64,000 nt of DNA, taken from NCBI GenBank assembly GCA_001950395.1, contig BDLO01000001.1:657979-721978 (forward strand), written 5' to 3'. Origin of the DNA: Coriobacteriaceae bacterium EMTCatB1. Lineage in GTDB: Bacteria; Actinomycetota; Coriobacteriia; Anaerosomatales; Anaerosomataceae. Shown here one piece after another: positions 13,040 to 27,930 of this stretch. Within the stretch, counting starts at the first letter, position 1; each line of letters opens with the position of its first letter. The position numbers and the translations under genes were made by a program. Under the pieces are notes generated by a model. The model searched no databases. It saw only the letters and a list, made by a program, of their open reading frames with translations, and was not told the DNA's origin.

Positions 13040-13062
13040 CATCGAACAGATGTTCGTATAGC
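13036..13062 (+). promoter_or_regulatory. recA promoter
   Basis: A consensus -35 TTGACA is at 13036-13041. The best -10 is TATAGC at 13057-13062 with a short 15-bp spacer, or TAGCGT at 13059-13064 with 17 bp. The -35 overlaps the thpR stop codon. The spacer is filled by a perfect SOS box, so LexA binding should block polymerase directly. Confidence 0.7.
13043..13056. promoter_or_regulatory. LexA operator (SOS box) of recA
   Basis: CGAACAGATGTTCG matches the Gram-positive/actinobacterial SOS consensus CGAAC-N4-GTTCG with both half-sites perfect. It sits between the -35 and -10 of recA. The same motif occurs upstream of the lexA gene in this window. Confidence 0.9.
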
Positions 13063-13114: not shown

Positions 13115-14137
13115 ATGGAAACCGAGAAGGAGAAGGTGCTCGATCTGACGAGAGAGCAGATCGAGCGGAAGTTCGGCAAGGGGTCGCTCATGCGGCTCGG
13201 CGAGCACGCCGCGGTCGCAGGCATCAGCGCAATCCCCACGGGGTCGCTCGCCCTCGATGCCGCGCTCGGCATCGGCGGGGTCCCGCGCGGGCGCATCGTC
13301 GAGATCTTCGGCCCCGAGTCGTCCGGCAAGACGACGCTCGCCTTGCAGATCGTCGCCGAAGCGCAGCGCATGGGCGGCGTCGCCGCGTACATCGACGCCG
13401 AGCACGCGCTCGATCCAACGTACGCCGCCCGGCTCGGCGTGGACATCGACGAGATCCTCATCTCCCAGCCCGACACCGGCGAGCAGGCGCTCGAAATCGC
13501 AGACATGCTCATCCGCTCGGGAGCGATCGACGTCATCGTCGTCGACTCGGTCGCGGCTCTCGTGCCACGGGCAGAGCTCGAGGGCGAGATGGGCGACACG
13601 ACGGTCGGCCTCCAGGCCCGGCTGATGAGCCAGGCGATGCGCAAGCTGGCCGGCTCCCTCAACAAGTCCAACACCACCTGCATCTTCATCAACCAGCTGC
13701 GCGAGAAGGTCGGCGTCATGTTCGGCAACCCCGAGACGACCTCGGGAGGGCGCGCCCTCAAGTTCTACGCGTCCGTGCGCATCGACGTCCGCCGCATCGA
13801 CTCCATCAAGCAGGGATCCGAGATCGTGGGCAACCGCGTCCGTGCCAAGGTCGTCAAGAACAAGGTCGCGCCGCCGTTCCAGCAGGCCGAGTTCGACATC
13901 ATGTACGGACAGGGCATCTCGAAGGAAGGAAGCCTCCTCGACCTCGGCGTGGAGGAAGGCGTCGTGGCGAAGTCCGGAGCGTGGTACACCTACGGCGACG
14001 AGCGGCTCGGGCAAGGTCGCGAGGCGGCGAAGGACTTCCTTCGCGAGCACACCGACATACGAGACCGGATCGAGCAGGAGCTCCGCGAGAAGCTCGGGCT
14101 CCCCGACCCGGTGCGCAGGGACGACGCCGACGCATGA
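13115..14137 (+). CDS. recA: recombinase RecA
   Basis: RecA forms ATP-dependent filaments on single-stranded DNA, drives homologous recombination, and triggers LexA self-cleavage. The 340-residue protein has Walker A GPESSGKT (66-73), the Walker [11 protein letters not shown], the conserved catalytic FINQLREK and the L2-loop region [14 protein letters not shown]. No intein is present. It is preceded by its own SOS-controlled promoter and overlaps recX by an ATGA. Together with lexA at 26158 it completes the SOS sensor-repressor pair. Confidence 0.97.
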
Positions 14138-24835: not shown

Positions 24836-26161
24836 ATGCCCGAACGGGCCACCGGATACGTCCCCGCCGCGGCTGAGCGCGCTGAGAGAGCGGTCCTCGT
24901 CGGCGTCGACCGGATCGGCGACAAGCGTCCGCTCGCGTGGGACCTCGAGGACGACCTCGCTGAGCTCGCGCGCCTCGCCGACACCGCAGGTCTCGAGGTC
25001 GTCGGCACCGTGACGCAACGGCTCGCGAAGCCCGAGGCCAAGACCTTCATCGGCACCGGCAAGGCCGAGGAAGTGGCGCGCCTCGCCAGGGAGCGCGAGG
25101 CCACCGTCGTCGTGCTCGACGACGAGCTCACTCCGAGCCAGCAGGCGAACCTCGAGCGGCTGCTTCCGGATGTCCGCGTCATCGACCGCACGGCGCTCAT
25201 CCTCGAGATCTTCGCGCAGCACGCCGTGAGCTACGAAGGAAAGCTCCAAGTGGAGCTCGCGCAGCTCGAGTACCAGCTGCCTCGGCTGAAAGGCATGTGG
25301 GAGCACCTCGAGCGCGAGCGGCTCGGCGGCGGCAGGGGAGCGCGTTTCGGGGCAGGCGAGTCGCAGCTTGAAACGGACCGCCGCCTCACGCGCAAGCGCA
25401 TCGCCGAGCTGAAGCGAGAGATTGCTGCCATAGCCCGCCATCGCGAGACCCAGCGCCGTGCTCGCGTCGGCTCCGGCGTCTTCCGTATCGCGCTCGTCGG
25501 CTACACCAATGCCGGGAAGTCCACGGCGCTGAACGCGCTCACCGACGCCGGCGTGTTGGTGGAAGACAAGCTCTTCGCCACGCTCGACGCCACGACCCGC
25601 CGCCTCGAGTTGCCGATGGGCCGCGAGGCCACGATCACCGACACCGTCGGTTTCATCAACAAGCTGCCGCACGGGCTGGTCGAGTCGTTCCGCTCGACGC
25701 TCCAAGAAGCCAGAGAGGCCGACCTCCAGCTGCACGTGGTTGACGCGTCGTCGCCGCACGCCGCCGCACGCATCGCCGCCGTGAACGAGGTGCTCGCGGA
25801 GATCGGAGCGAACGACCGGCGCCAGCTGCTCGTGTTCAACAAGTGCGATCTGGTCGCAGCAGACGACCTGGCTCGGCTCGAGCGGGCGTGGCCGAACGCG
25901 GTCTTCATCTCGGCGGCCAGCGGCCGTGGCATGGACGTGCTCGTGGACCGATTGGCGCAAGAAGCCGCACGCCTCGACGAGCCGGTGCGGGTCACGATAC
26001 CGTTCTCGCGCGGCGATCTGGTCTCAGCGCTGCACGAAAGAGGGACCGTGCTGTCGGAGGAGCACACGCCTGCGGGCACGGTCATCACAGCGCGCGTGCC
26101 GCACGACCTAGCGGCCCGCCTCGACCCGTTCCGTACGGACGAGGACGCGCAGGACGGCTAG
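24836..26161 (+). CDS. hflX: ribosome-associated GTPase HflX
   Basis: HflX is a GTPase that splits stalled or stress-arrested 70S ribosomes. The 441-residue protein has the HflX N-terminal domain (about 15-190, with [28 protein letters not shown] and QLEYQLPRL), the loop [20 protein letters not shown], then the G domain with G1 GYTNAGKST (222-230), G3 DTVGF and G4 NKCD. It is complete. Its TAG stop shares the palindrome CTAG (26158-26161) with the convergent lexA stop, so there is no room for a terminator between the two genes. Confidence 0.95.
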
Positions 26162-26781
26162 AGCCGCCGGAAGAGCGCCACGACCTTGCCGAGGATCCGC
26201 GCGTCGCGCACGTAGATGGGCTCCATCGCGCTGTTCTCGGGCTGAAGGCGGATCCTGTCCGCTTCGCGGTAGAAGCGCTTGACTGTCGCCTCGTCCTCGA
26301 TGAGCGCGACGACGATGTCTCCGTTGTCCGCGGTGGCCTGCTGTCGCACCACCACGAAGTCGCCGTCCAGGATGCCCGCCTCGATCATGCTGTCGCCGCG
26401 CACGCGGAGGATGAACGTCGACTCGCCCGCGAACTCGGCGGGCAAGGGGAGGGTCGCCTCGATGTTCTCCGCAGCCAGGATCGGCTGTCCCGCGGCCACC
26501 GAGCCCACGAGCGGAACGGCGGTCACGGCCCGCGGGTCCACACCTCGCTCCGTGTCGCGGAAGTCCAAGACCTCCAGCGCACGGGGCTTGGTGGGATCGC
26601 GGCGGATGTAGCCGTGCTTCTCGAGCGCCGACAGGTGCGCGTGGACCGTCGACGACGACGAAAGCCCCACTGCCTCGCCGATCTCCCGGACCGACGGGGG
26701 ATACCCCCTGCGGTGGATCTCCGACCTGATGAAGTCCAGGATCTGCTCCTGGCGGCGGGTGAGCCGTGGCTGGTACTCCAT
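26158..26781 (-). CDS. lexA: SOS repressor LexA
   Basis: LexA represses DNA-damage genes until RecA filaments stimulate its self-cleavage. The 207-residue protein has an N-terminal winged helix (about 1-68, [30 protein letters not shown]), the A97-G98 cleavage site in SVAAGQP, and the catalytic dyad S131 (RGDSM) and K168. ATG 26781 follows AGGGGGCGAC; the frame is open upstream but without homology. The promoter TTGCAT-17 bp-TAGACT has its -35 overlapped by a near-perfect SOS box, so lexA is probably autoregulated. It diverges from the LysM gene and converges with hflX. Confidence 0.96.
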
Positions 26782-26812: not shown

Positions 26813-26841
26813 AGTCTAGCGCGTCCGCGCGCGCGATGCAA
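26813..26841 (-). promoter_or_regulatory. lexA promoter
   Basis: On the minus strand, -35 TTGCAT (26841-26836) and -10 TAGACT (26818-26813) are separated by exactly 17 bp. The SOS box at 26839-26852 covers the edge of the -35. Confidence 0.65.
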
Positions 26842-26852
26842 ACATGCGTTCG
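26839..26852. promoter_or_regulatory. LexA operator A (near-consensus)
   Basis: CAAACATGCGTTCG differs from CGAAC-N4-GTTCG at one position. It overlaps the lexA -35 box, so it is the likely autoregulatory site and probably weaker than the two perfect boxes beside it. Confidence 0.6.
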
Positions 26853-26860
26853 ATTCTCGC

Positions 26861-26889
26861 TTGAAATACGAACACCTGTTCGCTACTCT
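26861..26889 (+). promoter_or_regulatory. Promoter of the LysM (YneA-like) gene
   Basis: -35 TTGAAA (26861-26866) and -10 TACTCT (26884-26889) are 17 bp apart. SOS box B fills the spacer and box C lies 5 bp after the -10, which predicts tight LexA repression. Confidence 0.65.
26869..26882. promoter_or_regulatory. LexA operator B (perfect SOS box)
   Basis: CGAACACCTGTTCG has both half-sites of the SOS consensus. It is centred 30 bp from box A and lies in the spacer of the LysM gene promoter. Confidence 0.88.
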
Positions 26890-26894
26890 AGCTT

Positions 26895-26908
26895 CGAACA
26901 GGCGTTCG
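26895..26908. promoter_or_regulatory. LexA operator C (perfect SOS box)
   Basis: CGAACAGGCGTTCG has both perfect half-sites. It is centred 26 bp from box B, just downstream of the LysM gene -10. Confidence 0.88.
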
Positions 26909-26971
26909 ATAGATGTCAGACCTTCCGCGTAGCATGAGGCGCGTCGACAGCACACGACGAAGGAGCGAACG

Positions 26972-27337
26972 ATGAAGACCGGACGCACGCGAGCGACGAT
27001 CATCCAGGCGCTGGGAGCTGTTCTGTCCCTGACGCTTCTGCTGGCCGCGATCGCACATGCGGGAGCGACTGCGTCCCCGAGTGCTGGAGCCACCGAAACG
27101 ATCGTGGTCGTCGTACGGCCAGGCGACACGCTGTGGTCGATCGCGCGGCGTTGCGACGTGCCTGGCCGATCGATGCCTGAGAAGGTCGCCGCCATACGCG
27201 CCGCCAATGACCTCGCCACCGCAATGATCCGGCCCGGACAGACCCTCGTGGTGCCAGTAGTGGGCGACCGCCGCCAAGTCGCGCAAGGCCCGGCTGGCGA
27301 TCGGGTTCGCGAAGCTCCGCAAATCGAGACGAGGTGA
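26972..27337 (+). CDS. SOS-controlled LysM membrane protein, YneA/DivS/ChiZ-like division inhibitor
   Basis: The 121-residue protein has one N-terminal transmembrane or uncleaved signal segment (about 11-30) and an extracytoplasmic LysM domain (about 44-95, with [13 protein letters not shown] and [10 protein letters not shown]). It ends in a short polar tail. This is the layout of YneA in Bacillus and of the Rv2719c/ChiZ and DivS proteins of actinobacteria, SOS-induced proteins that delay septation. The gene diverges from lexA, is covered by two perfect SOS boxes, and precedes nrdR, the same order as in mycobacteria. Sequence identity outside LysM is low, so the assignment rests on architecture, operators and synteny. 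Confidence 0.8.
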
Positions 27338-27425: not shown

Positions 27426-27454
27426 TTGCGACGCAATATGTTGTGTGCTAGTCT
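27426..27454 (+). promoter_or_regulatory. Predicted nrdR operon promoter
   Basis: TTGCGA (27426-27431) and TAGTCT (27449-27454) are separated by 17 bp, 30 bp before the nrdR start. The spacer contains a candidate NrdR box. Confidence 0.5.
27431..27446. promoter_or_regulatory. Candidate NrdR box 1
   Basis: ACGCAATATGTTGTGT is a 16-bp imperfect palindrome (12 of 16 positions symmetric) that resembles the NrdR box consensus ACACwATATATwGTGT. It lies between the -35 and -10 of the nrdR promoter. Confidence 0.6.
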
Positions 27455-27483: not shown

Positions 27484-27930
27484 ATGCGGTGTCCGTACTG
27501 CGGTCACGAAGAGACGAAGGTGGTCGACTCGCGGGTCTCTGAGTCTGGCGACGCGATCCGCAGACGGCGCGAGTGCTTGCAGTGCGCCAAGCGGTTCACG
27601 ACGTACGAGCGCCGCGAAGACGTGCCTCTGATGGTCATCAAGAAGGACTCCAGACGGGAGCCCTTCGACAGAGGGAAGCTCTTGCGCGGGCTTGTCGTCG
27701 CCACCGCGAAGCGCAACGTGACGACCGCCCAGCTGGAGGCGCTGATCGACGACATCGAGGCCGAGCTGCACAACTCGTTCAGGTACGAGGTGCGCGCGAA
27801 AGATCTTGGCGACATGGTGCTCAAGAGGCTGCTGGAGCTGGACAAGGTCGCGTACATCCGGTTCGCGTCCGTCTACAAGCAGTTCCAGGACCTCGACGAG
27901 TTCACCTCGGAGCTCAAGAAGCTCGAGTGA
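27484..27930 (+). CDS. nrdR: transcriptional repressor NrdR
   Basis: NrdR senses ATP/dATP and represses ribonucleotide reductase genes. The 148-residue protein has the N-terminal zinc ribbon [16 protein letters not shown] with C3 and C6, plus the second pair in [14 protein letters not shown]. An ATP-cone domain follows from about residue 46 ([17 protein letters not shown]). ATG 27484 fits the family start; an upstream ATG at 27469 would add five residues without similarity. It is followed 67 bp later by nrdD, so regulator and target probably share a transcript. Candidate NrdR boxes lie upstream. Confidence 0.95.

What the first reader, a model, noticed from the sequence alone, without database searches (positions are those of the whole stretch)
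26972..27337. LysM membrane protein as SOS division checkpoint in a deep-branching actinobacterium
The 121-residue transmembrane-LysM protein has the architecture, regulation and neighbours (lexA, nrdR) of Rv2719c/ChiZ and YneA, although those differ strongly in sequence. It would extend a mycobacterial-type checkpoint to an anaerobic lineage.
Basis: partly seen in the sequence, partly recalled or inferred. Interest (0 to 1): 0.5.

Follow-up and report, generated by a model that had tools for sequence, protein, structure and literature searches.

The report
SOS-controlled LysM membrane division brake
This gene encodes a small membrane-anchored, cell-wall-binding protein switched on by DNA damage that very probably pauses cell division, a known bacterial strategy; the less expected part is that some related bacteria carry, at the same spot, tiny membrane peptides that lack the wall-binding domain.

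Summary
Window 26972-27337(+) encodes a 121-residue protein: one N-terminal membrane helix and one LysM domain, divergent from lexA and upstream of nrdR. Two perfect LexA boxes and one near-perfect box lie between it and lexA.

The LysM part is clearly YneA-like: all 54 family members match NCBIfam's YneA model. The membrane part alone shows no detectable similarity, and the window protein stays below the YneA cut-off (48.4 against 60 bits).

Nor is it an isolated extension: lexA-LysM-nrdR occurs in 54 of 57 intact loci of the order, and 61 of 80 phylum hits lie divergent to lexA. Of 21 genomes, 15 have a Pfam LysM match, each exactly one, always this gene.

New: 3 loci of the order, and 29 of 35 LysM-less lexA loci elsewhere in the class, carry a membrane-segment ORF without LysM instead (1.4 of 35 in shuffles), some only 36-38 residues.

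Verdict: new member of a known kind; mechanism inferred.

The parts
26972..27337 (+). SOS-linked membrane-LysM protein gene (121 aa)
   Evidence: ORF, AAGGAG before ATG; LysM 7.9e-12; best NCBIfam model YneA NF010723, below its cut-off
26984..27067 (+). N-terminal membrane helix, residues 5-32 (holds a signal-peptidase-like AHA)
   Evidence: helix 5-32; AHA motif
27110..27256 (+). LysM domain, residues 47-95, with G51-D52-T53-L54-W55
   Evidence: Pfam; 49 residues on 42 model positions, so 7 inserted residues; strands 42-47 and 91-96, helices 54-60 and 68-79
26839..26852 (.). LexA box, one mismatch (CAAACATGCGTTCG)
   Evidence: a CAAAC-form box lies in the first 100 bp of 55 of 58 order loci
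26869..26882 (.). perfect LexA box (CGAACACCTGTTCG)
26895..26908 (.). perfect LexA box (CGAACAGGCGTTCG), 63 nt before the LysM ATG
26960..26965 (+). ribosome-binding site AAGGAG
   Evidence: read from the sequence
26158..26781 (-). lexA, divergent neighbour
   Evidence: TIGR00498, 252.4 bits
27431..27446 (.). NrdR-box-like palindrome (2 mismatches) between the LysM gene and nrdR
   Evidence: only site in the window at up to 3 mismatches, found on both strands; 0.01 expected; consensus pattern recalled
27484..27930 (+). nrdR
   Evidence: TIGR00244, 198.7 bits
27998..30124 (+). nrdD, anaerobic ribonucleotide reductase
   Evidence: PF13597, 1.2e-148
13043..13056 (.). perfect LexA box before recA (13115-14137): same regulon in the window
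   Evidence: recA recognised by eye from its translation

Best explanation
The gene is part of the LexA regulon. DNA damage activates RecA, LexA is cleaved, and the tandem boxes between lexA and this gene are freed (shown: boxes and their conservation; inferred: induction). The product sits in the membrane by its N-terminal helix with the LysM domain outside (inferred from sequence and model). By likeness of the LysM part to YneA, it most likely blocks septal peptidoglycan synthesis: the membrane helix docks on the divisome (in B. subtilis on FtsW TM7) and the LysM domain holds nascent glycan, so cells elongate without dividing until LexA recovers. Removal is probably by an exported protease; the genome has one S41 (CtpA-type) peptidase. 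The division block and the FtsW target are inference from B. subtilis, not shown here.
For: LexA boxes, perfect and conserved (56 of 58 order loci have three or more boxes in 300 bp). Gene order lexA-LysM-nrdR in 54 of 57 intact loci; 43 of 43 class hits outside the order and 61 of 80 phylum hits divergent to lexA (a lower bound, since some lexA rows were not listed). 54 of 54 members match NCBIfam YneA, the next model 14; for the window protein YneA scores 48.4 bits, the next NCBIfam model 28.2, Pfam LysM 45.4. hhalign against 47 lexA-neighbour proteins, mostly Bacillota: 99.5%, E 3.9e-23, 69 columns (these 47 had been picked by the family HMM). Each of the 15 genomes with a Pfam LysM match (21 searched) has one, this gene. 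D52 and T53 sit in the GDT motif; in YneA D46 and T47 are needed for division block (PMC13396833, passages). Three SEDS proteins and one S41 peptidase in the genome.
Against: No expression or phenotype data. The N-terminal part alone shows no profile similarity to the Bacillota proteins (0.8% probability), so docking on FtsW is not supported by sequence. LysM domains are widespread, so kinship of LysM alone is modest evidence of shared function. The window protein is below the YneA cut-off, has Q12 where 38 of 54 members have E or D before the membrane helix, and ends in ETR while 45 of 57 have A at -3. Its AHA could be a cleavage site; 16 of 54 members have such a motif by a crude pattern. 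D of the GDT motif is D in only 27 of 54 members (T in 46). Two order loci (L110, L121) keep only the lexA-side box. Authors of PMC3998124 (passages) think that SOS control of division may have evolved several times in Gram-positives.
Confidence: 0.8

Rival explanations
1. An SOS-induced envelope protein that binds or remodels peptidoglycan (or helps a hydrolase, such as the SOS-boxed M23 peptidase elsewhere in the genome) without blocking division.
For: LysM only suggests wall binding. An M23 peptidase gene has a perfect LexA box 48-50 nt upstream in G000, G001 and G002, so the SOS response here probably touches the wall. ChiZ is described as a wall hydrolase (PMC3989709, passages).
Against: No catalytic domain found in the protein. 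All 54 members match the YneA model, the next model 14, and the position next to lexA is that of the division inhibitors YneA and SosA (PMC13396833, PMC6851548, passages).
Confidence: 0.12
2. The boxes serve lexA autoregulation only; the LysM gene is a passive neighbour with its own promoter.
For: lexA is normally autoregulated (recalled). Two order loci (L110, L121) keep the LysM gene with only the lexA-side box. No sigma-70-like promoter was found around the gene, so the start site is unknown.
Against: Three or more boxes in 56 of 58 order loci, the last one 57-130 nt before the LysM start as chosen by a script, and co-conservation of the gene with lexA.
Confidence: 0.06
3. The N-terminal segment is a cleaved signal peptide and the protein acts as a secreted LysM factor.
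For: A-H-A at residues 28-30 of the window protein; 16 of 54 members have a comparable motif by a crude pattern. That YneA is also processed is recalled, not read.
Against: 38 of 54 members lack the motif. Related loci keep a membrane segment without LysM, which suggests that the segment matters in itself, if those proteins do the same job.
Confidence: 0.1

Closest known systems
YneA (Bacillus subtilis; NCBIfam NF010723)
   Same: One N-terminal membrane helix, one LysM domain, divergent to lexA with LexA boxes; LysM part related, with the same long spacing between the LW..A and N positions (20 residues in 51 of 54 here; 19-21 in 38 of the 44 proteins of the mostly Bacillota set that the pattern fitted).
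   Different: 48.4 bits against a cut-off of 60; no detectable similarity of the membrane part; nrdR next door.
ChiZ / Rv2719c (Mycobacterium)
   Same: SOS-induced LysM protein described as a negative regulator of division (review PMC3989709, passages). The same lexA-LysM-nrdR order is seen here in an unnamed actinobacterial genus, g112 (L173-L175).
   Different: No named ChiZ sequence was compared. g112 proteins score lower to the family (31.2-36.5 bits) and to the YneA model (24.8 and 33.1 bits for two of three); L176, same family but another genus, had no match. ChiZ is reported as a hydrolase, with LysM apparently dispensable.
SosA (Staphylococcus)
   Same: Divergent to lexA, SOS-induced, single membrane segment; its last 10 residues are thought to mark it for turnover by CtpA (PMC6851548, passages).
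   Different: No LysM. It resembles the LysM-less proteins of L094, L114, L123 and L261-L295 rather than the window protein.
DivS (Corynebacterium glutamicum)
   Same: SOS-inducible division suppressor near lexA (PMC3989709, passages).
   Different: Described there as without significant homology to YneA; not compared here.

Membership tests
YneA equivalog family (NCBIfam NF010723) | score at or above the curated cut-off of 60 bits | tested here: not met
   48.4 bits, E 6.7e-13, yet the best of the listed models
YneA equivalog family (NCBIfam NF010723) | N-terminal membrane helix followed by one LysM domain | tested here: met
YneA equivalog family (NCBIfam NF010723) | divergent to lexA with LexA boxes between | tested here: met
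YneA equivalog family (NCBIfam NF010723) | wall-binding residues equivalent to D46 and T47 | tested here: met
   D52 and T53 in GDTLW; equivalence read from the motif, B. subtilis YneA itself not aligned; residues named in PMC13396833 (passages)
YneA equivalog family (NCBIfam NF010723) | membrane helix like that of YneA and docking on FtsW TM7 | tested here: inconclusive
   no profile similarity of the N-terminal part; docking not testable here
YneA equivalog family (NCBIfam NF010723) | blocks division when induced | not testable with these tools
   needs experiment
broad lexA-divergent membrane-LysM family (YneA-like) | LysM part related at profile level and gene beside lexA | tested here: met
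   YneA model matched by 54 of 54; hhalign 99.5% on a set pre-selected by the family HMM; 54 of 57 loci; phylum 61 of 80
ChiZ / Rv2719c | gene order lexA-LysM-nrdR | tested here: met
   the mycobacterial gene order itself is recalled
ChiZ / Rv2719c | sequence orthology to named ChiZ | not tested
   no named sequence available; only the unnamed genus g112
SosA | no LysM domain | tested here: not met
   LysM present
DivS | sequence homology to DivS | not tested
   no DivS sequence at hand

The most novel reading that the evidence does not exclude
LysM is an optional module of this checkpoint. The constant element at the locus is an SOS-boxed single membrane segment encoded beside lexA. In several lineages LysM appears to have been lost, leaving small membrane proteins, in some families only 36-38 residues (three loci of the window's order; 29 of 35 LysM-less lexA loci elsewhere in the class; in Bacillota three Gracilibacillus loci, about 31 residues, and staphylococcal SosA). 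These would be natural division-inhibitor micropeptides that act without holding peptidoglycan, so by a different last step from the one proposed for YneA. Common descent of the membrane segments, and their function, are not shown.
Probability: 0.4. Interest if true: 0.65.

Novelty: new member of a known kind. Interest (0 to 1): 0.45.

Why it matters
It places the LysM-type SOS division brake in an anaerobic actinobacterial order and suggests that YneA of Bacillota and the lexA-neighbours of Actinomycetota are related by their LysM part. In the genomes of the order where Pfam sees a LysM domain it is the only one, so LysM there appears dedicated to the DNA-damage response. The LysM-less proteins at the same locus offer natural variants for asking which part blocks division: the B. 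subtilis work says the membrane segment alone localises but does not inhibit, whereas SosA and a review of ChiZ suggest that LysM is not always needed.

Tried and rejected
Rejected: a LexA-regulated rnpA. The perfect site inside rnpA of G000 has counterparts in two other species of the genus, but the site spells codons for E-R-L-F, so protein constraint explains it (read from the sequence). Rejected: similarity of the membrane part with the Bacillota proteins; hhalign found none. Rejected: pseudogene remnants as the explanation of LysM-less loci in the order; no LysM-like stretch was found in three frames of L094, L114 or L123, and their distance to nrdR is like that of the other genes.

Led nowhere or weak: no sigma-70-like promoter or terminator around the gene. 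Foldseek ranked LysM structures first, but none at E below 0.001 (best 4uz2, 2.5e-3); a profile search of PDB sequences matched LytE at 2.2e-16; the g112 protein found no relative in PDB. The hhalign comparison used proteins already picked by the family HMM, so its score is not independent.

Literature: no paper in the held library joined Coriobacteriia, SOS and LexA. Rv2719c/YneA/LysM/lexA gave 4 papers, ChiZ/LysM/lexA 4, yneA/sosA/divS/lexA/conserved 3, a five-term search 1, SOS regulon in Actinobacteria 3. Cornish et al. 2012, which may already discuss Gram-positive SOS division inhibitors, was not held, so priority is not excluded. PMC3998124, PMC6851548, PMC3989709 and PMC9686372 were read only as passages; of PMC13396833 I saw the abstract, passages, section 6 and part 1 of 2 of the discussion.

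C-terminal motif: A at -3 and R at -1 each in 45 of 57 proteins of the order. R is also common at C-ends of long window ORFs (11 of 48, a crude greedy set), and the window protein lacks the A, so a turnover signal is only an idea.

Full report
What is there. Window 26972-27337(+) is an open frame of 121 codons with AAGGAG shortly before its ATG. The product has one N-terminal membrane helix (residues 5-32 in the AlphaFold2 model) and one LysM domain (Pfam residues 47-95, E 7.9e-12; model strands 42-47 and 91-96, helices 54-60 and 68-79; mean pLDDT 82.9, pTM 0.52). lexA (26158-26781, minus strand) is divergent, nrdR (27484-27930, plus) follows, and nrdD comes next. Between the LysM gene and nrdR lies an NrdR-box-like palindrome at 27431-27446 (2 mismatches to a recalled consensus; the only such site in the window, 0.01 expected), so nrdR probably has its own control.

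Regulation. Three LexA boxes lie between lexA and the gene: 26839-26852 (one mismatch), 26869-26882 and 26895-26908 (perfect). The 1.84 Mb genome has 8 perfect CGAACN4GTTCG sites: two here; one before recA; two at the start of a UvrD-type helicase gene; one about 0.5 kb before a DnaE-type polymerase; one 50 nt before an M23 peptidase gene; and one inside rnpA. In all 58 lexA loci of the order the first 260 bp hold at least one site with at most one mismatch, and in 53 a perfect one; dinucleotide shuffles gave 0.92 and 0.06 loci on average. 56 of 58 have three or more boxes in 300 bp; L110 and L121 have one. The commonest spacings there are 26-31 and 45-47 bp. The loci share ancestry, so these shuffles are not a phylogenetic test.

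Conservation in the order. A search of 61 genomes (own, same genus, family and order) with the protein found a match in 56, and lexA in 58. I fetched these lexA regions. Of 58 loci with a lexA N-terminus (the window included), 57 also hold nrdR, and 54 have a family ORF between the two. L068 ends at a contig end (its LysM gene and nrdR are on another contig, L067), and L094, L114 and L123 have a membrane-segment ORF without LysM. G029, the genome of L094, also has a weak match with a stop inside on another contig (E 0.002), not pursued. Invariant in the 54-member alignment: M1, W55, A58, N79 and P95. At T53 the residue is T in 46 of 54 and at D52 it is D in 27 of 54. E or D stands before the membrane helix in 38 of 54, but the window protein has Q12. 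Of 57 proteins (54 plus the three LysM-less ones), 45 end in R and 45 have A at -3; the window protein ends in E-T-R. Start codons in the relatives were chosen by a script.

A single LysM protein. Pfam LysM was sought in 21 genomes of the order. 15 have a match, each exactly one, and each is the family gene (in G003 on a contig apart from lexA). Six have none at this threshold: G004, G007, G009, G029, G030 and G031. The family profile still finds the gene in five of these six, all but G029. So in the genomes with a match LysM appears to be used only in this SOS-linked protein, within the reach of the Pfam model.

Wider distribution. With the alignment as profile, 105 of 149 class genomes match; 62 are in the order. 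All 43 matches outside the order are divergent to lexA within 1.5 kb. In the phylum sample 81 of 149 match, so 68 do not; leaving out G000, 61 of 80 are divergent to lexA and 19 are not by my count. Six of those 80 are also in the class set. Lower-scoring lexA rows were not listed, so 61 is a lower bound: G184, counted as a miss, has its family ORF divergent to lexA (L159). Some of the 19 lie 2-5 kb from lexA or on other contigs.

Relation to YneA and ChiZ. NCBIfam's YneA model is matched by 54 of 54 members; the next model is matched by 14. The window protein scores 48.4 bits against a cut-off of 60, so I do not file it as a YneA equivalog. A named scan with LexA kept the best 80 loci, 51 of which have a family ORF divergent to lexA (E below 1e-3 in a small ORF set). 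After dropping seven records (six Actinomycetota, one Armatimonadota), 47 of 73 remain; the other 26 had no match. Profile comparison with 47 such proteins gave 99.5%, E 3.9e-23 over 69 columns, but these had been picked by the family HMM, so the score is not independent; with the N-terminal parts alone (49 and 37 sequences) there was nothing. Kinship is thus shown for the LysM part only. An unnamed actinobacterial genus (g112, 5.6-6.2 Mb; Mycobacterium only by my recall) has a weaker member at the same place, with nrdR (L173-L175, 31.2-36.5 bits); L176, same family but another genus, had none. Against a single origin, the authors of PMC3998124 think that SOS control of division may have evolved several times in Gram-positives (passages).

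Mechanism. In B. subtilis YneA, the membrane segment binds FtsW TM7 and localises the protein, LysM wall binding (D46, T47) is needed to block division, and the membrane part alone localises but does not inhibit (PMC13396833: abstract, section 6, part of the discussion, and passages). SosA of Staphylococcus lacks LysM, and its last 10 residues are thought to mark it for turnover by CtpA (PMC6851548, passages). A review says that LysM of ChiZ appears not to be needed (PMC3989709, passages). The genome here has three SEDS proteins and one S41 peptidase. I therefore think this protein pauses division after DNA damage (about 0.8), with the FtsW route likely but less certain (about 0.55). Nothing here shows induction or a phenotype.

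LysM-less loci. Of the 38 class genomes outside the order without a family match, two had no lexA match and one a split lexA; I fetched the other 35 (20, 15). LexA boxes with at most one mismatch lie in the first 300 bp of 31 of these 35. In 29 of 35 an ORF with a membrane segment lies between lexA and nrdR or within 600 bp; shuffled intervals gave 1.4 on average, 5 at most in 60 rounds. As a control I took 20 phylum loci without a match: of 18 long enough, 3 had such an ORF, and one of the 18 (L318) holds a LysM protein that the 600 bp limit cut off. Most f19 proteins end in the membrane segment, and 14 of 20 f19 loci have an ORF with G-[ST]-[SA]-A-L, seen by eye also in some f18 proteins with and without LysM. 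Candidatus Aphodovivens avistercoris (NCBI: Coriobacteriia) has a similar one (L243). Families f17 and f20 have 36-38 residue proteins. Codon differences fall on third positions: 3, 2, 18 (L272 against L294) and 7, 1, 20 (L273 against L292), as for a selected protein; more distant pairs are less clear (18, 3, 27; 18, 9, 22; 29, 20, 29). The six loci without such an ORF are L274, L276, L277, L282, L286 and L287; L282 has one too short for my limit. None of five LysM-less proteins tested has an NCBIfam match, and none of four a Pfam match above cut-off. Their function is unknown; that they replace the LysM protein is inference from position and boxes.

Where it comes from. G027, G028 and G033 have contigs of the same lengths as the named records PHET01000001.1 (HGW-Actinobacteria-7), JAQIBK010000204.1 and JAENZW010000003.1. 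The class is Coriobacteriia by the likeness, by eye, of f19 proteins to that of Candidatus Aphodovivens. The order is probably OPB41/Anaerosomatales (PMC9686372, passages), which is my inference. That paper describes anaerobes; the window has nrdD.

Noticed in passing
L003:2778-3719 (G000 1417769 box), L321:473-1450, L336:1563-2480: An M23 peptidase gene has a perfect LexA box 48-50 nt upstream in three species of the genus, with differing central bases: a probable SOS-controlled peptidoglycan peptidase.
   Followed up: partly
L270, L271 (f17); L272, L273, L280, L292-L295 (f20): Membrane proteins of 36-38 residues beside lexA (in L280 within a longer frame); LexA boxes were seen in L270, L271, L273, L280 and L292 but not in L272 or L293-L295; third-position codon bias in close pairs.
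   Followed up: partly
L261-L269 and L281-L291 (f19): Mostly proteins ending in a membrane segment beside lexA; 14 of 20 loci have an ORF with a G-[ST]-[SA]-A-L motif.
   Followed up: partly
L217, L218, L239 (Gracilibacillus): Short single-membrane-segment ORF (about 31 residues) divergent to lexA, without LysM, where many other Bacillota have YneA.
   Followed up: no
order proteins, C-terminus (57 proteins): A at -3 and R at -1 in 45 of 57 each; might be a turnover signal. The window protein itself ends in ETR.
   Followed up: partly
window 27431-27446: NrdR-box-like palindrome before nrdR, suggesting autoregulation separate from the SOS gene.
   Followed up: partly
lexA intergenic regions of the order, the class and the named genome-contig loci: Neighbouring LexA boxes recur with spacings near 28-30 bp in these groups; 20 of 73 named loci outside Actinomycetota and Armatimonadota had no box.
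   Followed up: partly
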